Part shown: positions 10,059 through 59,603 of the stretch, in pieces
Layout: every line of letters starts with the position of its first letter
Position numbering within the stretch: the stretch's first letter is position 1
Assembly: GCA_016931995.1 (NCBI GenBank)
Contig: JAFGDS010000151.1
Coordinates: 1 to 64,000, forward strand
Direction: 5' to 3'
DNA: 64,000 bases
From: Pirellulales bacterium
GTDB taxonomy: Bacteria; Planctomycetota; Planctomycetia; Pirellulales; Thermoguttaceae
Made by a program: the position numbers and the translations under genes
Notes under the pieces: generated by a model
Seen by the model: only the letters and a program-made list of their open reading frames with translations
Told to the model about the DNA's origin: nothing
Database searches by the model: none

Positions 10059-11615
10059 CTACTTCCACTCGACCGGCTTGCCGTCGTTGCGCTGGAACAT
10101 GCGGCGAAGCGTCTCGGGGTCGGTTTCGTTGTGCAACGCGCGGGCGGAGGCGTCGCAAAACAGGACGTTGACGAATCCCCGGTACAGCCCGGCGAGGTCC
10201 TTGGCGGGGTTCGCGGGGTCGAAGGGCCAGTCGTCCGGCTTGGTCCACGGCACGGCCGCCGCGTCGCTCGCCTCGACCAGCATGATCGTGTTGGACGTTC
10301 CGTCCGTGATGTCCTGGATCTTCGTGCCCTCGGCGCCCTCGAACACCGTGCCCGGCCCAACCGGCACGAGATAGTTCGTGTAGCCGGGTTTGGCCAGCTT
10401 CGAGGCGGGTGAACGGTACGCGGCGGGCATCTTCTCCAGGAGCTTGATGTTATGCGGGCTGTCCCACGGCTCGTCCAGATGGAACTGCTCGAAGAGCCCT
10501 GACTCGTCCACGTACGGCAGGATGAGCACCCGCCAGCTCAGAAGGGGCTTGCCCGAGGCGTCGCGAACGGCCGCGGGCGGAAACGTCTTCTTCGCCTCGT
10601 GGTAGTTGTGCATCGCGATGCCGATCTGGCGGAGGTTGTTCATCGCCTGCATGCGATGGGCGCTTGCGCGGGCTTCGGTGATGGCCGGCTGGAGCACGGC
10701 CGCGATTTTGGCCAGCCCCTGGTTTTCGCGATTCAAGTCGAGCACGAGCTGGTCGCCCTGCTGCTGGGGCACGAAGACGTCGAGGAGCTCCTTGGCGTTG
10801 GGCAGTTCGCGGGCGACTTCCTTCTGTTGGGCAATGAGGGCGAAGCCGCGCCGGATGAAGCCCAAAAACGCCTCGGCCGAGGCGGCGTCTTCCGATTGGA
10901 TCACCGCCCGCAGGCCCAGGTCGGGCGCGAGCGTCACCCCGGCGCTGGCCCAGAGCACGCCGCGGGTGAGCACGCTGCTGGGTCCGCCGCCGATTTCTTC
11001 CGGCAGGGTCGGCAACAGCTCCTCGAGCACGCGGCGGCTGTACTTGGGCGGCAGGAAGACGCCCTGCGCGGCCGTGTCGCCCGCCGCGGCAAAGCCCTTT
11101 TCCAGCTCCGGCCGGGGGTCCGGCTTAAGCGCCGCGAGCCGGGCGATCGTCTGCTCGCTTCCGACCACCAGGGCCGAGCCGATCCGCTTCCGCTGGGCGA
11201 ACATCTTCTCGTCAATCTGCGCCAACAACACGGCCAGCAGGTCCTCATTGCTTCCCTCGCTCGCCGGGAAGACGAGGAACAGGAAGTTCTCCTCGGCCAG
11301 CGGACCAGCCATCGTGATCACGGCGTAGACCTCCTTCACGCCGCCGTCGAGGATACCCTGGACCACGCCCTGGCTGGCCGCGCGGGGCATGGCCGATTGA
11401 CGCCGGATTTCCTCGGGCGCGATTTTTTCCACCTCGTCGAACAGCGGATTCAGGTCCACCTTGGCTAGGTTGACCCGTACGACGGCCACGGTTTGCTCGT
11501 CAATAAACGGCGCGACCAGCTTCGCCTGCGCGGCCGGGTCGAACCCCTCGGCCCGCGCCCACGCGGGGGCGAGCAACACGGACAAGAGGCAAACGGTTTG
11601 GATCAGGGTCTTCAT
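10059..11615 (-). CDS. Exported DUF1559-domain protein without a pilin helix
   Basis: A 518-residue protein with an ordinary signal peptide (MKTLIQTVCLLSVLLAPAWA, cleavage after ARA). A long N-terminal region of about 310 residues follows that I do not recognise. The C-terminus is a DUF1559 domain: NNLRQIGIAMHNYHEAKKTF, then LLSWRVLILPYVDESGLFEQ, LDEPWDSPHN, a TSNTIMLVEA motif and a final VLFCDASARAL signature. Most DUF1559 proteins carry a prepilin leader and membrane helix; this one has neither, so it is expected to be soluble in the periplasm or secreted. It stands alone on the minus strand between fliS (convergent) and the sigma module. Confidence 0.85.
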   Translation of the reverse strand: MKTLIQTVCLLSVLLAPAWARAEGFDPAAQAKLVAPFIDEQTVAVVRVNLAKVDLNPLFDEVEKIAPEEIRRQSAMPRAASQGVVQGILDGGVKEVYAVITMAGPLAEENFLFLVFPASEGSNEDLLAVLLAQIDEKMFAQRKRIGSALVVGSEQTIARLAALKPDPRPELEKGFAAAGDTAAQGVFLPPKYSRRVLEELLPTLPEEIGGGPSSVLTRGVLWASAGVTLAPDLGLRAVIQSEDAASAEAFLGFIRRGFALIAQQKEVARELPNAKELLDVFVPQQQGDQLVLDLNRENQGLAKIAAVLQPAITEARASAHRMQAMNNLRQIGIAMHNYHEAKKTFPPAAVRDASGKPLLSWRVLILPYVDESGLFEQFHLDEPWDSPHNIKLLEKMPAAYRSPASKLAKPGYTNYLVPVGPGTVFEGAEGTKIQDITDGTSNTIMLVEASDAAAVPWTKPDDWPFDPANPAKDLAGLYRGFVNVLFCDASARALHNETDPETLRRMFQRNDGKPVEWK

Positions 11616-11841: not shown

Positions 11842-13494
11842 TTACTTTTCTCGAAACGTCACTATGTATCGCCGGACACGGTGGTCGGACCGTCCGTCGG
11901 GAAGGACCATCGACTCCAGCACGACCGTCCGACCGTCGCGACGATACGCGACGGGCTTGCCCGTGTACGGGTCGATCGGCATGGGCACTTCGGTCACCTC
12001 GTCGAGCCGGTCGGGCAGTTGGCCGTCGTGCCGGGCCGCATGGATCCGCACCGCCTCGACCGTGCGGAGCATCGCGACCTCTTGGGCGTTGCGGACCTCG
12101 GCCGACTTGGCCGCCTGGATCGCCGGTAGGAGCAGGCTGGCCACGGGCACGATTTCCCGCCGCCACGACTCGGCCTTCAGGAACTGCTCGGCCTCGTCCA
12201 TGCCCTTTTCGGCCTCCCAATACGGCAGCGGGAACCACCGGAACATCCGATCGCGGAACTCGTTAAACGTCTGGGACGTGTACAGCAGCACGACCTGGGC
12301 GACGGGCAGGGCCTCGACCTCCTCGCGGGAGCGGCCCTGGGCGATCAGGCTGTCGCGGGCACGCGGATAGCCAACCAGGGCCAGGCCGGCGACGATGACC
12401 CGCGCGTGCGATGCCTCCATTTGCCCGTTGGACGCGTACAGGGCCCATTGATTGGCCATCTGATCGAGGAACCCCCGCCAGTATTCCAGGCTGCGGGGGT
12501 CGGTCGGCACGTCGCGAAGCACCGGGAACATCATGTAAACGAGTTCCATCTCCGCCTCGAACGCGCCGCGGAGGTCGATCGGCGGATTGGGCAGGGCCGT
12601 CAGCGCCCAATACAGATTGGGACAGTCCGGTTGCTCCATGAGCGCATTGGCCTGCTCGAAGGCCATCCCGTGCATGGCGATGCCCACCAGGCCGCTGACC
12701 AGGAACGGCGCTTCGGCCACGTGCCGGCCCATGGCCAACTGGGTCTGAAGCGTCTCGACGGCCTCGTCGATCTTGCCCTCGGCGATCTCAACCCGGACTT
12801 TCAAGCACGTCAGCCGCGCCAGACTCCGCATCGACTGGATCTCGGGCAAGAGGATTCCAATAGGGTCTTTCGACTCGCGGACTGGCAGTTCCCAGTCGCA
12901 CTCGTCTCGCCGGGCCGCCATGTGGATCTCGTCCAACGTCGCCTGGTAGCCATCCAGGAGCTTCCTCGCATCCTTCAATGGGATCTTTGCCAGGGGCATT
13001 TCCAGCCAATCGCTGATGGTCTGCTGGTCCTTGTCGGAGTTCGTGTTCTGCATCATCGCGATCGCCCGATGGTAGTGCAGCGCGGCGTTGCCCGGCTTGC
13101 GGTCGAGGAAACCGGGCAGAAGCAGGTATTTGAGCGACTCGCGGGGCTCGTCGGCGGGAGAGACGGTCAGCCGGGCGGTGCGGATGTCGTCCTCGGGGGG
13201 ATTCGCGGGCGCCAGCGACGTTTGAGACGACGCCAGCGGCGCGATCAACGAGACGAACAACGCGGACAGCGCCACGAGCATGGCCACATGTGGCACCGCC
13301 GCCCTCGGCGGTGCGGACTGCCCAGCCGAGGGCGGCTGGGCCACAGGGCCGCAAGCAGCCCTTGGGGCCTCTTGTCTCCCATCCCCAATCCCCAATCCCC
13401 AATCCCTATTGGACACCCTCACCCCTGGCCCCTCTCCCGCAAGCGGGCGAGGGGAGCATGTGAAGGCACGCCTCAAGACATGCTTGGATTTCAT
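11842..13494 (-). CDS. Exported protein, third gene of sigma module copy 1
   Basis: Paralogue of the protein at 58068-59603. Shared landmarks, in order: KYLLLPGFLDRKPGNAALHY, DECDW, CPNLYWALTALPNPP, LLYTSQTFNEFRDR, and a C-terminal segment (HAARHDGQLP...VPMPIDPYTGKPVAY) resembling the loop of type II secretion pseudopilins. The family is unnamed to me; helix-rich and TPR-like by eye. ATG 13494 overlaps the preceding stop (ATGA) and has GGAG upstream, so it is the coupled start. It begins MKSKHVLRRA, a good signal-peptide n-region, but about 60 residues encoded by dispersed repeats intervene before the hydrophobic core (LVALSALFVSLIAPLASS). An internal ATG at 13281 could start just before the core but lacks positive charges. 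Confidence 0.75.
   Translation of the reverse strand: MKSKHVLRRAFTCSPRPLAGEGPGVRVSNRDWGLGIGDGRQEAPRAACGPVAQPPSAGQSAPPRAAVPHVAMLVALSALFVSLIAPLASSQTSLAPANPPEDDIRTARLTVSPADEPRESLKYLLLPGFLDRKPGNAALHYHRAIAMMQNTNSDKDQQTISDWLEMPLAKIPLKDARKLLDGYQATLDEIHMAARRDECDWELPVRESKDPIGILLPEIQSMRSLARLTCLKVRVEIAEGKIDEAVETLQTQLAMGRHVAEAPFLVSGLVGIAMHGMAFEQANALMEQPDCPNLYWALTALPNPPIDLRGAFEAEMELVYMMFPVLRDVPTDPRSLEYWRGFLDQMANQWALYASNGQMEASHARVIVAGLALVGYPRARDSLIAQGRSREEVEALPVAQVVLLYTSQTFNEFRDRMFRWFPLPYWEAEKGMDEAEQFLKAESWRREIVPVASLLLPAIQAAKSAEVRNAQEVAMLRTVEAVRIHAARHDGQLPDRLDEVTEVPMPIDPYTGKPVAYRRDGRTVVLESMVLPDGRSDHRVRRYIVTFREK
13282..13470. repeat. Three dispersed repeats inside the 5' part of a gene
   Basis: Within the coding frame of the preceding entry lie, in + order: an inverted pair of the GCCGCCCTCGGC family (13288-13345), four tandem copies of ATCCCCA-type heptamers (13381-13409), and a CCCTCTCCCGC...GCGAGGGGAG hairpin (13428-13456). 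All three families also occur between genes elsewhere in the window. The frame stays open through all of them. Confidence 0.85.
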
Positions 13495-14060
13495 AATGAC
13501 TTCTCCATCAAGAACCTCTGCCAGTCGCCTGAGCGGCGGGGACTGGCGGACGGGGCAGGTGAATCGGACGCGGGCGCCGCGGGCAGGGCGTCCACGCCGC
13601 ACCGCAGCACGTAGTCGCGAAACCGTGGATAAGGAAGCCTGCGAACCTCCGCGGCCGTGAGCCACTGGGGCGTGGGCGCTACCGAGGCCAGCACCGCCGA
13701 CTCGATCGACCAGCCCGGCGGCGCCGTGCGCCGCGGCGCTTCGCGCTCGGGCACGGCCGGCGCGACGGGCGCTGCGTCCTCGGTCGCCGGCGCGGCGGTG
13801 GTGACGGACGTGGGCAGGTAGACGATCCGATCGATGGTCTGGGGCTCGGGCCGCACGGCCAGCATCACGGCCAACGTGGCGGCCACGACACTCATGCCGG
13901 CGAAGGCCGCCGGCCACGCCCGCGAACGCCGCGCGGCCGACGCCTTTCCAGCCAGGTACATCACCCGGCCCGCGTCGAGCCGATCCGCCCGGGGCACCAG
14001 CGCGGCCAGCTCGGCCTCGAATGCCTTCAACTCGCTCGGGAGGTCTTCTTCTTGGGACAT
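13491..14060 (-). CDS. Small single-pass membrane protein, candidate anti-sigma factor, module copy 1
   Basis: A 189-residue protein with a cytoplasmic N-terminal part (residues 1-50), one membrane helix (AFAGMSVVAATLAVMLAV), then an exported Pro/Ala-rich part. It is paralogous to the protein at 57368-57844: both share a pre-membrane motif Y-x-AG-x-ASA-x-RRSRA, a post-membrane motif (D/E)RIV(Y/F), and a C-terminal G(V/I)DALP. The position directly after an ECF sigma gene, with a 34-base overlap, and the one-helix topology suggest an anti-sigma factor, but the usual zinc anti-sigma motif (H-x3-C-x2-C) is absent. Its stop overlaps the start of the third gene. Anti-sigma function is inferred from context. 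Confidence 0.75.
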   Translation of the reverse strand: MSQEEDLPSELKAFEAELAALVPRADRLDAGRVMYLAGKASAARRSRAWPAAFAGMSVVAATLAVMLAVRPEPQTIDRIVYLPTSVTTAAPATEDAAPVAPAVPEREAPRRTAPPGWSIESAVLASVAPTPQWLTAAEVRRLPYPRFRDYVLRCGVDALPAAPASDSPAPSASPRRSGDWQRFLMEKSL

Positions 14061-14542: not shown

Positions 14543-14621
14543 CCGCGGCGTCTCGTCGGGGCTTCCCTCAGTATAGACGCCAGCCAGGCCCGGATGACCC
14601 AAAAATCCGCCAGTGGGGGGG

Positions 14622-56867: not shown

Positions 56868-57371
56868 ATGGACGACTCGAGCCCAGGGCGAAACGGAGCG
56901 TGCGACGCCGAGCGGCTCGGCGCGCTGTTCGACCGGCACGCGGCCGCGCTCGCCTTGTTCGCCTCGCAATGGTGCGATTGTCCGGAAGACGTGGTGCAGG
57001 AGGCCCTGGTCGAGTTGGGCCGCCGGGGTGGGGGGCTCGACGATCCGGCGGCGTGGCTTTTTCGCGTGGTCCGCAATCGGGCGATCGACCGCGGCCGGGC
57101 CCTGCGGCGACGCCGGCGGCACGAAACGGCTGCCGGCCAGCAGCGTGCCGGCTGGTCGCCCGCGGTCGAGTCCGACCGGCTCGACGCCGCCGCGGCGCTG
57201 GCCGCGGTGGAGAGGTTGCCCGAGGAGGAGCGCGAGATCGTCGTCGCCCGGATTTGGGGTGGGCTGACGTTCCAACAAATCGCGGCGATGGCGGGCGTGT
57301 CCGACAGCGCGGCCCATCGCCGCTACGAGAAAGCGCTCGCCTCGCTGCGAGAACACTTGAGGTTGCCATGA
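56868..57371 (+). CDS. ECF-type RNA polymerase sigma factor, module copy 2
   Basis: A 167-residue ECF sigma factor paralogous to that at 14027-14542. Region 2: CPEDVVQEALVELGRRGGGL and AAWLFRVVRNRAIDRGRALR. Region 4: LPEEEREIVVARIWGGLTF and QQIAAMAGVSDSAAHRRYEK. Region 3 is absent, as in all ECF factors. It overlaps the next gene by four bases (ATGA). ATG 56868 is preferred over the TTG at 56847; neither has a strong ribosome site. It probably switches on its own operon, inferred from the usual behaviour of ECF factors. Confidence 0.9.
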   Translation: MDDSSPGRNGACDAERLGALFDRHAAALALFASQWCDCPEDVVQEALVELGRRGGGLDDPAAWLFRVVRNRAIDRGRALRRRRRHETAAGQQRAGWSPAVESDRLDAAAALAAVERLPEEEREIVVARIWGGLTFQQIAAMAGVSDSAAHRRYEKALASLREHLRLP

Positions 57372-57844
57372 CGGAATTCAACTTGAACGACGAACTCCGG
57401 GCAGTCGAGACGGCCCTGCGGTCCATCCGGCTCGCTCCGCCGGGATTGGACCGCGACCGGCTGTTGTACGAAGCCGGCCGGGCGTCCGCGCGGCGGTCCC
57501 GAGCAGGGCGGCTGGCGGGCGTCCTGGCCGCGGCGGCGGCGGTTGCCGTGGCGTTTGTCGCGGGCCGAAACGCGGCCGGGCCAACGTCGGTCGAGGTCGT
57601 CGAGCGGATCGTCTTCGTCGCCGACGACAACCAACCCGACCTGGGCTTCGCCGCCGCGCCGTCGGCAAGTCCGCGGCGCGAGTCGCCGGACGAGCGCGGC
57701 CTGGCCACGGTCGGGATGTTGAATCGTTTGATTGCCGAGGGCGGCATCGACGCGCTGCCGCATGCGCCGCTGGTGCTACCGATCGGCCCGCCCCCGGATC
57801 GCGCGCCCACCGTCCGCGGCTGGCGCGGCGACGCGCCGGGGTAG
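57368..57844 (+). CDS. Small single-pass membrane protein, candidate anti-sigma factor, module copy 2
   Basis: A 158-residue protein, paralogous to that at 13491-14060. Residues 1-50 are charged and probably cytoplasmic (LDRDRLLYEAGRASARRSRA), one membrane helix follows (LAGVLAAAAAVAVAFVAG), and the exported tail contains VVERIVFVADD and a late GGIDALPH. No zinc anti-sigma motif and no cysteine is present. Translational coupling to the sigma gene (ATGA overlap) suggests a regulatory partner. The third gene of the module begins 223 bases downstream. Confidence 0.75.
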   Translation: MTEFNLNDELRAVETALRSIRLAPPGLDRDRLLYEAGRASARRSRAGRLAGVLAAAAAVAVAFVAGRNAAGPTSVEVVERIVFVADDNQPDLGFAAAPSASPRRESPDERGLATVGMLNRLIAEGGIDALPHAPLVLPIGPPPDRAPTVRGWRGDAPG

Positions 57845-57867
57845 GGCAGCCGGGAGAGCCGTTTCCC

Positions 57868-58033
57868 GTCATTCTGAGCGCAGCGAAGAATCTCTTCGGA
57901 CGCGTCACGGAGATCCTCCGCTTCGCTCAGGATGACCAAATTGCCGGCCGCCATGGTCGGGCGCCATGGCCACGCTTGCGTGGCCATGCGCGGCCCGAGA
58001 GAACATGCCCACGCAAGCGTGGGCATGGCACCC
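57868..58033. repeat. Two inverted repeats between the second and third module genes
   Basis: CATTCTGAGCGCAGCGAAGA (57870) faces CTCCGCTTCGCTCAGGATGA (57916). Next GCCATGGCCACGCTTGCGTG (57963) faces ATGCCCACGCAAGCGTGGGC (58004). They occupy the only gap inside this module. Confidence 0.85.
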
Positions 58034-58067
58034 AACACGGAACCCCTTCCGAATGGAGGATACTGCC

Positions 58068-59603
58068 ATGCGTTATCTCCTCACACTATGTTCTATCGCG
58101 ATGGTCTTGTTCTGTGTTGCGCCGGCTCGGGGAGACGACGCGGCAAAGCCGCCCTCGGAGGCGTCGCCCCCCGCGCCCACGCGGGTGGACCTCGCGCTCC
58201 ATCCGGCCGAGCCGCCGGCCGCGGCGCTAAAGTATCGCCTGACGCCCGACTACCTGGAACAAACGCCCGGCAACGCGGCGACGTTGTACTTGCGCTTCAC
58301 CATGCGGTTTCACGATCAATGGGCCCGCGCGATGGGCATGACCATGGACAATCCGGAGTCGCAGAATCGTTTTATGCAATTGAGCAACCAGATGGAGGTG
58401 TGGCTGCGTCAACCGCCGTCGGAGTTGCCTTGCGACGAGGTGGAGCAATTCCTGTCCCACTTCGACCGTTCGTTGGACTACGCCCAGGCGGCCTCGCGCC
58501 GCGTCGATTGCGACTGGGGACATCTCCTACGAGAAAGCGGCAACGACGTGCTGAGCGTCGAGATTTACGAATTCGACGCATTGCACGGGTTGGACCGCAT
58601 CATCGCGCTTAAGGCTCGCCTTCGCGTGGCCAAAGGCGATTTCGACGGCGCGTGCTCGTGGCTACGAACGGCATACTGCCACGCGAGACACCGAAGCATG
58701 GCGCCGTTCCCCGTGAACAAGATATTCGGCATGCAGTTGGTTGGTCGCGTGGCCGATCAACTGGAAGCAATGTCGCAACAGCCTGGCGCGCCCAATCTTT
58801 ATTGGACCGTCGCGGCCCTCCCGCGGCCGCCCGTCAACATTGAGGACGAGATTGAACTCGATGCGTCCATGCTCTACATCGAGTATCCTCAATTCCAGGA
58901 GGCTCGCCGCACCGGCCTCACGGCGCGTCAGGCGCAGGACCTTGTCGACCGAGTCATCGCGCGCGTCCGCAAACGGCAAACCTTCATGTCCCATCCGGAG
59001 GCCGAGACGAAGGCGTTCGAGGATTGGACTGACGGGCTCGATCCTGCAGAGTTCGTCAACCGGAACTACGCGGAAGCCAGCAAGGGCTTAGCGGCGGCCG
59101 GGCGCAACGAACAGGAAATCACCACAATGCCGGCGGCGCAGGCCGTGTTGCTGTACACGGCGATGCGGTACGACCAAGCTCGGGACGCCGATCAGAAGTG
59201 GATCTATGTACCGTATTGGCAAGCCGAGAAGCAGGCCGAGACCGAAGAGAAACGCCTGGCCGAAGAGATCAGGAAGTCGGAACCGCTGCGCCTGGTGTGT
59301 GGCTTGCTGCCGAATTCCCGAATCCTCCACTACTACCTTGCCCACACCGAGCGTCGCCTGGCCACGCTTCAAGTAATCGAGGCGATCCGGTTCCACGCGG
59401 CCAAGCACGACGGCAAGCTACCGCCGAGCCTGGAGGCGATCACGGAAGTGCCCGTGCCGATCAATCCGGTGACCGGCCGGGCGTTTCCGTATCAGCTTGA
59501 CGGCGACGTGGCGATCCTCAAGGCCGACGGCGGGCCGGCCAAGCACGCGGCGGACCAACGCGAGTACCACATCCGCATCGCGCCGCGCCGCGGGATTCGT
59601 TGA
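58068..59603 (+). CDS. Exported protein, third gene of sigma module copy 2
   Basis: A 511-residue protein, paralogue of that at 11842-13494. It has a clean signal peptide (MRYLLTLCSIAMVLFCVAPA), then KYRLTPDYLEQTPGNAATLY, VDCDW, APNLYWTVAALPRPPV, VLLYTAMRYDQARD, and a C-terminal HAAKHDGKLPPSLEAI and VPVPINPVTGRAFPY segment like the C-terminal loop of GspG-type pseudopilins. The protein is mostly helical by eye. No enzymatic motif was found. AATGGAGG lies before the ATG. It is expected to act in the periplasm or envelope; the activity is unknown. Conserved neighbourhood with sigma and candidate anti-sigma genes makes it a probable signal sensor or output. Confidence 0.75.
   Translation: MRYLLTLCSIAMVLFCVAPARGDDAAKPPSEASPPAPTRVDLALHPAEPPAAALKYRLTPDYLEQTPGNAATLYLRFTMRFHDQWARAMGMTMDNPESQNRFMQLSNQMEVWLRQPPSELPCDEVEQFLSHFDRSLDYAQAASRRVDCDWGHLLRESGNDVLSVEIYEFDALHGLDRIIALKARLRVAKGDFDGACSWLRTAYCHARHRSMAPFPVNKIFGMQLVGRVADQLEAMSQQPGAPNLYWTVAALPRPPVNIEDEIELDASMLYIEYPQFQEARRTGLTARQAQDLVDRVIARVRKRQTFMSHPEAETKAFEDWTDGLDPAEFVNRNYAEASKGLAAAGRNEQEITTMPAAQAVLLYTAMRYDQARDADQKWIYVPYWQAEKQAETEEKRLAEEIRKSEPLRLVCGLLPNSRILHYYLAHTERRLATLQVIEAIRFHAAKHDGKLPPSLEAITEVPVPINPVTGRAFPYQLDGDVAILKADGGPAKHAADQREYHIRIAPRRGIR

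What the first reader, a model, noticed from the sequence alone, without database searches (positions are those of the whole stretch)
56868..59603. Two paralogous copies of a three-gene sigma module with an unnamed exported protein
Genes at 14542-11842 (minus) and 56868-59603 (plus) have the same order: ECF sigma factor, small one-helix membrane protein, exported protein of 510-550 residues. All three pairs share specific motifs (for example NLYW-x-(V/L)-(T/A)-ALP-x-PP in protein 3, ASA-x-RRSRA in protein 2). The first two genes overlap in both copies (34 and 4 bases). A whole-module duplication, or a module family with many copies, is implied. ECF sigma factors with dedicated membrane partners are known; I know of no described group with this third gene. 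Whether protein 3 is a sensor, a co-regulator or the regulated output is open.
Basis: partly seen in the sequence, partly recalled or inferred. Interest (0 to 1): 0.82.

Follow-up and report, generated by a model that had tools for sequence, protein, structure and literature searches.

The report
Conserved planctomycete sigma-factor signalling operon
The window holds two ancient versions of a small signalling operon, widespread in planctomycete bacteria but not described in any source I could read, in which a gene-switching sigma factor comes with its own membrane partner, one or two exported helper proteins, and a shared promoter that probably lets it switch itself on.

Summary
Both modules (A, 14542-11842 minus; B, 56868-59603 plus) carry ECF sigma, one-helix membrane protein (P2) and exported protein (P3) in that order. 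The sigma factors share 52% identity, P2 35%, P3 31%. This is a large family: 69 of 75 untruncated P3 loci from public genomes have the sigma gene just upstream, mostly with P2 between. New here: (1) a bipartite promoter, TGGGAAAA-N12-GGCGTCTT, lies just before the sigma gene in about two thirds of loci, against 0.07% of shuffled controls, and before both window copies. (3) P2 is predicted as two short cytoplasmic helices, one membrane helix and a flexible tail, the layout of class II (CnrY-type) anti-sigma factors. (4) P3 is a confidently modelled helical-repeat protein without a clear structural relative. Modules A and B belong to different old subfamilies. Best reading: an autoregulated sigma/anti-sigma switch whose exported proteins carry or tune the signal. 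Binding, signal and direction of control are untested.

The parts
14573..14602 (-). Predicted autoregulatory ECF promoter of module A: TTGGGTCAT-N12-GGCGTCTAT
   Evidence: 20.9 bits, the best hit of this motif in the window; also one of six hits with at most one mismatch in the 5.43 Mb genome
14027..14542 (-). Module A ECF sigma factor (171 aa)
   Evidence: Pfam sigma-70 regions 2 and 4; 52% identical to the module B sigma
13491..14060 (-). Module A P2: predicted class II-like anti-sigma factor, two cytoplasmic helices, one membrane helix, flexible tail
   Evidence: AlphaFold model: helices 9-19, 30-43, 48-69; family profile and position between sigma and P3
13285..13490 (-). Repeat-bearing stretch between P2 and the signal peptide of P3 A
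   Evidence: Inverted repeats; 16-base unit shared with 56626 and 56658
11842..13494 (-). Module A P3, exported helical-repeat protein; likely true start ATG 13281
   Evidence: Alignments A1, A4, A5; signal peptide at 13281
10059..11615 (-). Module A P4: signal peptide, about 290-residue new N-terminal domain, C-terminal DUF1559 (PF07596); fourth gene of the operon
   Evidence: PF07596 E 2.6e-36; downstream of P3 in 45 of 67 sigma-bearing loci; 82 of 106 P4 genes lie just after P3
56832..56861 (+). Predicted autoregulatory ECF promoter of module B: GCGGGATGA-N12-GACGTCTTG; the -10 box ends 6 bases before the ATG, so the transcript may be leaderless
   Evidence: 18.7 bits, second best hit in the window
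56868..57371 (+). Module B ECF sigma factor (167 aa)
   Evidence: Pfam sigma-70 regions 2 and 4
57368..57844 (+). Module B P2, predicted membrane anti-sigma factor (158 aa)
   Evidence: 35% identical to P2 A; family profile
58068..59603 (+). Module B P3, exported helical-repeat protein (511 aa); no P4 follows
   Evidence: AlphaFold pLDDT 90.3, pTM 0.89; its clade (L089, L094, L053) is the one without P4

Best explanation
Each module is a self-contained, autoregulated transmembrane switch. SHOWN by sequence: the gene order, the tight gene overlaps, the conserved promoter before the sigma gene, the layout of P2, the signal peptide and helical-repeat model of P3, and the frequent fourth gene P4. 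INFERRED: P2 holds the sigma factor inactive through its two short cytoplasmic helices, as CnrY does with CnrH. Its flexible extracytoplasmic tail carries conserved short helical motifs (YxxxRxxxLxxGxDxLP and a C-terminal helix) that dock on the helical-repeat surface of P3, which works alone or with P4. A change in the envelope sensed by P3/P4 alters P2, the sigma factor is freed, and it transcribes its own operon from the TGGGAAAA-N12-GGCGTCTT promoter, so that all parts rise together.
For: Sigma just upstream of P3 in 69/75 untruncated loci, P2 usually between; sigma/P2 overlapping in 61 of 65 called modules, P2-P3 spacing -4 to +380 bp. Promoter: 65% of 74 upstream regions score 18 bits or more by leave-one-out against 0.07% of dinucleotide shuffles, with a 12-bp inner gap in 60 of 64; in 1.69 Mb (both strands) of fetched loci 54 of 77 hits lie before a sigma gene, none before P3. 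P2: two cytoplasmic helices plus membrane helix; membrane helix starts at residue 50 (median), with more K/R before it than after. P3: pLDDT 90.3, all-helical repeat body. P3-P4 fused with DUF1559 in two genomes of different families, without an inner signal peptide.
Against: No binding data of any kind; complexes could not be modelled. P2 has no detectable sequence kinship to a known anti-sigma factor. Mirror-tree correlations are modest (sigma-P2 0.38, sigma-P3 0.48, P2-P3 0.45), below the 0.82 reported for ECF/class I anti-sigma pairs (PMC7406223), although identity-based distances on very divergent proteins blunt such a test. P3 also exists without sigma and P2 in roughly one locus in twelve to one in five, so it can serve without them.
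Confidence: 0.55

Rival explanations
1. P3 and P4 are the output, not the input. The sigma/P2 pair senses something by itself and the operon exists to make P3 and P4, which build or guard an extracytoplasmic structure; co-transcription is simply how the output is made.
For: The only conserved promoter is the one before sigma, so sigma activity directly sets P3 and P4 levels. P3 also occurs without sigma, at times in tandem. P4 carries DUF1559, a domain known from many planctomycete surface-type proteins (general knowledge).
Against: P3 and P4 are dedicated: 82 of 106 P4 genes lie just after P3. Sigma-less P3 copies lack the promoter, so they are not separate targets. Even distant P3-domain proteins have a sigma gene upstream in 7 of 12 evaluable cases, which fits a signalling role better than one fixed product.
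Confidence: 0.3
2. P2 is not an inhibitor but a positive, activity-giving partner or an assembly factor (FecR-like requirement) for the sigma factor or for P3.
For: No sequence kinship to any anti-sigma family; P2 is very variable (15% mean column identity).
Against: Short cytoplasmic two-helix domain, one membrane helix and translational overlap with sigma are the usual marks of an anti-sigma factor (PMC7406223 for the class II layout).
Confidence: 0.1
3. The module regulates or belongs to a pseudopilin-type secretion or filament system: P3 and P4 end in pilin-like caps.
For: The P4 profile start (DUF1559 region) weakly matches the P3 C-terminus (iE 0.0009 and 0.015); P3 ends in a long helix and strands.
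Against: No prepilin signal in P3 or P4; no secretion genes recur beside the module. The C-terminal part could not be folded or searched alone.
Confidence: 0.07

Closest known systems
RpoE-RseA-RseB (E. coli sigma-E system)
   Same: Gene order sigma, one-helix membrane anti-sigma, exported partner; autoregulated promoter; the exported partner binds the anti-sigma's outer part in E. coli (PMC8103513).
   Different: P2 has two cytoplasmic helices instead of the class I four-helix domain; P3 is a 450-residue all-helical protein; often a fourth gene. A likeness in logic, not kinship.
CnrH-CnrY-CnrX (Cupriavidus metallidurans)
   Same: Minimal two-helix cytoplasmic anti-sigma on one membrane helix (class II) plus a separate extracytoplasmic protein.
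   Different: No sequence match; different gene order; CnrX is a small metal sensor (my knowledge), P3 a large helical-repeat protein.
Planctomycete ECF sigma groups with C-terminal extensions or kinase partners (such as ECF59, 61, 62, 217)
   Same: Planctomycete expansion of ECF sigma factors with unusual partners (PMC8999054).
   Different: Here sigma is of plain length without extension or kinase; control is predicted through a membrane protein. The ECF group number could not be assigned.
DUF1559 (PF07596) proteins
   Same: P4 carries this domain (E 2.6e-36).
   Different: Usual members start with a prepilin-like segment (my knowledge); P4 has a signal peptide and a new 290-residue domain instead.

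Membership tests
ECF sigma factors | sigma-70 regions 2 and 4 only, about 170-200 residues | tested here: met
   Pfam PF04542, PF08281/PF04545 above cut-offs, lengths 167 and 171; NCBIfam superfamily TIGR02937 above cut-off
ECF sigma factors | Membership of a numbered ECF group of the 2021 classification | not testable with these tools
   Group models and the paper are not held; no NCBIfam subfamily reaches its cut-off
ECF-type promoter | CGT in the -10 box | tested here: met
   GGCGTCTT consensus, C-G-T-C at 65, 91, 85 and 93%
ECF-type promoter | AAC in the -35 box (PMC8103513) | tested here: not met
   Consensus is TGGGAAAA; AAC is a minority form
Class II (CnrY-type) anti-sigma factor | Two-helix cytoplasmic domain under about 50 residues before one membrane helix | tested here: met
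   Helices 9-19 and 30-43, membrane helix 48-69; median membrane start at residue 50 in 67 sequences
Class II (CnrY-type) anti-sigma factor | Sequence kinship to CnrY or another known anti-sigma factor | tested here: inconclusive
   Profile search of PDB sequences and Pfam gave none; such short domains diverge fast
Class II (CnrY-type) anti-sigma factor | Binds sigma domains 2 and 4 and inhibits | not testable with these tools
   No complex prediction or assay
Class I anti-sigma domain (RseA, RskA, ZAS) | Four-helix cytoplasmic domain of about 100 residues | tested here: not met
   Only two helices before the membrane. An Hx3Cx2C motif occurs in L112; I also read one in L066
RseB family | RseB sequence or fold | tested here: inconclusive
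   No Pfam hit for P3; the model is all-helical; no clear structural match
TPR / helical-repeat proteins | TPR signature | tested here: inconclusive
   3 of 79 members hit TPR models weakly; best VIA Z 8.5 to designed repeat proteins, within the background for helical models
DUF1559 (P4) | PF07596 above cut-off | tested here: met
   126.5 bits against cut-off 23.3

The most novel reading that the evidence does not exclude
P3 defines a planctomycete-wide superfamily of extracytoplasmic helical-repeat signalling domains that are the standard input partner of ECF sigma factors. It is plugged in as a separate exported protein (with P2, often with P4) or fused to membrane helices next to a sigma gene (L256, L260, L262). 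This would be a whole class of envelope signalling, with a new minimal anti-sigma family, that current classifications do not record.
Probability: 0.3. Interest if true: 0.8.

Novelty: new variant of a known kind. Interest (0 to 1): 0.62.

Why it matters
Planctomycetes carry very many ECF sigma factors whose partners and signals are mostly unknown. Here is a recurrent, compact operon with a predicted promoter, a candidate anti-sigma factor of the minimal type and one or two dedicated exported proteins. It also occurs in cultured strains (Singulisphaera acidiphila DSM 18658, Zavarzinella formosa DSM 19928, Aquisphaera insulae, Roseimaritima sediminicola). Promoter and anti-sigma predictions can be tested with a reporter in E. 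coli, so the question of sensor versus output becomes directly testable.

Tried and rejected
Recent local duplication of the module: rejected; A and B fall in different supported clades of the P3 tree and differ in P4. P3 as an independently regulated target of the same sigma: no promoter motif before P3 inside modules or before sigma-less P3 genes. Wider regulon in the own genome: the first pattern had the wrong inner spacing (of use only as a control: 83 hits against 64 for the reversed pattern). The corrected pattern gave 70 hits against 26, with module A among the six best; no other target was picked out. Fold relatives of P3: Foldseek best E 0.6, VIA Z up to 8.5 to designed repeats, no call made. 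Signal from conserved neighbours: apart from P4 no neighbour family recurs. One-ORF P3+P4 in Aquisphaera insulae (L153) keeps the P4 signal peptide inside, so it may be a lost stop or read-through; not counted as a fusion. Papers defining planctomycete ECF groups (Jogler 2012, Wiegand 2020, Casas-Pastor 2021) are not held, so the absence of a prior description could not be fully checked. The careful tree did not finish; the quick tree was used.

Full report
WHAT IS THERE. Both modules are present as described. Module A (minus): sigma 14542-14027, P2 14060-13491, P3 13494-11842. Module B (plus): sigma 56868-57371, P2 57368-57844, P3 58068-59603. Only the sigma factors match Pfam; P2 and P3 match nothing in Pfam or NCBIfam. 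The three pairs are 52, 35 and 31% identical. The sigma factors are nearest kin in the genome, the next sigma being 32% identical to B. The genome (5.43 Mb, 153 contigs) holds two modules plus a decayed P3 piece at the end of contig C30, beside an mraZ-like gene.

HOW WIDE IS IT. Profile searches found P3 at E 1e-20 or better in 150 of 397 genomes of the order, 80 of 145 genera. A scan of named genomes gave 80 loci, nearly all Planctomycetota with a few records labelled Verrucomicrobia. Of the 75 loci not cut by a contig end, 69 have a sigma gene of this type directly upstream on the same strand. P2 could be called in 65 of these modules, overlapping the sigma gene in 61. The result is not limited to the best hits: 16 of 20 weaker order-level loci and 11 of 12 strong phylum-level loci also have the sigma gene. 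Proteins sharing only the first helical domain of P3 (E 1e-19 to 1e-26) have an ECF sigma upstream in 7 of 12 evaluable cases; in L256, L260 and L262 that domain is joined to membrane helices.

PROMOTER. Aligning the DNA before the sigma genes gave TGGGAAAA-N12-GGCGTCTT. By leave-one-out, 65% of 74 upstream regions score 18 bits or more against 0.07% of dinucleotide-shuffled copies; the inner gap is 12 bases in 60 of 64. In 1.69 Mb (both strands) of fetched loci, 50 of 77 hits of 17.5 bits or more are tagged as before sigma. Four more (L093, L098, L107, L109) are by my reading also before sigma with a misplaced start, and none is before P3. In the window the two best hits lie before the two modules (14602 minus, 20.9 bits; 56832 plus, 18.7 bits). 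The -10 box of B ends six bases before the ATG, so a leaderless transcript is likely; several relatives look the same. The -10 fits the ECF rule (CGT); the -35 is GGGAAA rather than the usual AAC.

FOURTH GENE. Module A continues into P4 (11615-10059 minus): signal peptide, about 290 residues without any family, then DUF1559. P4 (one of them in the ambiguous one-ORF locus L153) follows P3 in 45 of 67 sigma-bearing loci with enough sequence downstream, at -1 to 352 bp. Of 106 P4 N-domain genes in 397 genomes, 82 lie just after a listed P3 on the same strand, and some of the rest lie at contig ends. In two genomes of different families P3 and the DUF1559 part form one protein without an inner signal peptide, one of them lacking the P4 N-domain (L263, L264). 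Module B has no P4. On the P3 tree A lies among P4-bearing modules and B in a supported group without it (L089, L094, L053). P4 presence needs 12 changes against 22.8 in shuffles, none of 500 as low. So the two copies are old subtypes, not a recent duplication.

STRUCTURES. P2: helices 9-19 and 30-43, membrane helix 48-69, a loose tail with short helices near 120-127, 144-154 and 177-188. Two cytoplasmic helices and under 50 residues before the membrane is the layout given for class II anti-sigma factors (CnrY) in PMC7406223; class I domains have four helices. P3: mean pLDDT 90.3, pTM 0.89; signal peptide, an all-helical repeat body (70-446) and a small strand cap. It has no convincing match among solved structures. 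Its C-terminus shows weak likeness to the start of the P4 DUF1559 region.

INTERPRETATION. Known steps elsewhere (a membrane anti-sigma holding an ECF sigma, and a periplasmic partner on the anti-sigma as in RseA-RseB; PMC8103513) fit this anatomy well. I therefore read the module as an autoregulated sigma/anti-sigma switch with dedicated extracytoplasmic partners. That P2 inhibits sigma I put near 0.8; that P3 (with P4) acts on P2 rather than being only the product, near 0.55 to 0.6. Mirror-tree correlations are positive but modest and do not settle it.

LIMITS. No binding or expression data; complexes could not be modelled; the ECF group could not be assigned, and the defining papers are not held. 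P3 occurs without sigma in about 8 to 20% of loci, depending on the sample. The named-genome scan was seeded by one conserved peptide, but the profile searches over whole genomes were not.

Noticed in passing
window 10059-11615 (minus): Fourth gene of module A: new N-terminal domain plus DUF1559, conserved after P3 in about two thirds of sigma-bearing modules.
   Followed up: yes
window 13285-13490 and 57845-58067: In both modules the P2-P3 junction carries intergenic inverted repeats; in A they are read as about 70 extra codons of P3, so annotated starts there are doubtful.
   Followed up: partly
L005 (G000 contig C30) 9018-9612: Decayed P3 copy with an inner deletion at a contig end, next to an mraZ-like gene; a third module may have been lost or lie beyond the contig end.
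   Followed up: partly
L112 5276-5899; L066 5918-6745: In these P2 proteins the second cytoplasmic helix is replaced by a stretch with Hx3Cx2C, the zinc signature of class I anti-sigma domains: a possible link between anti-sigma classes.
   Followed up: no
L256, L260, L262: Distant P3-domain proteins fused to four or one predicted membrane helices, directly beside an ECF sigma gene.
   Followed up: partly
L073, L080, L130, L162: P3 genes in tandem pairs without sigma in some genomes.
   Followed up: no
L153 6001-9078: Aquisphaera insulae: P3 and P4 in one ORF with the P4 signal peptide kept inside; lost stop, read-through or real fusion.
   Followed up: partly
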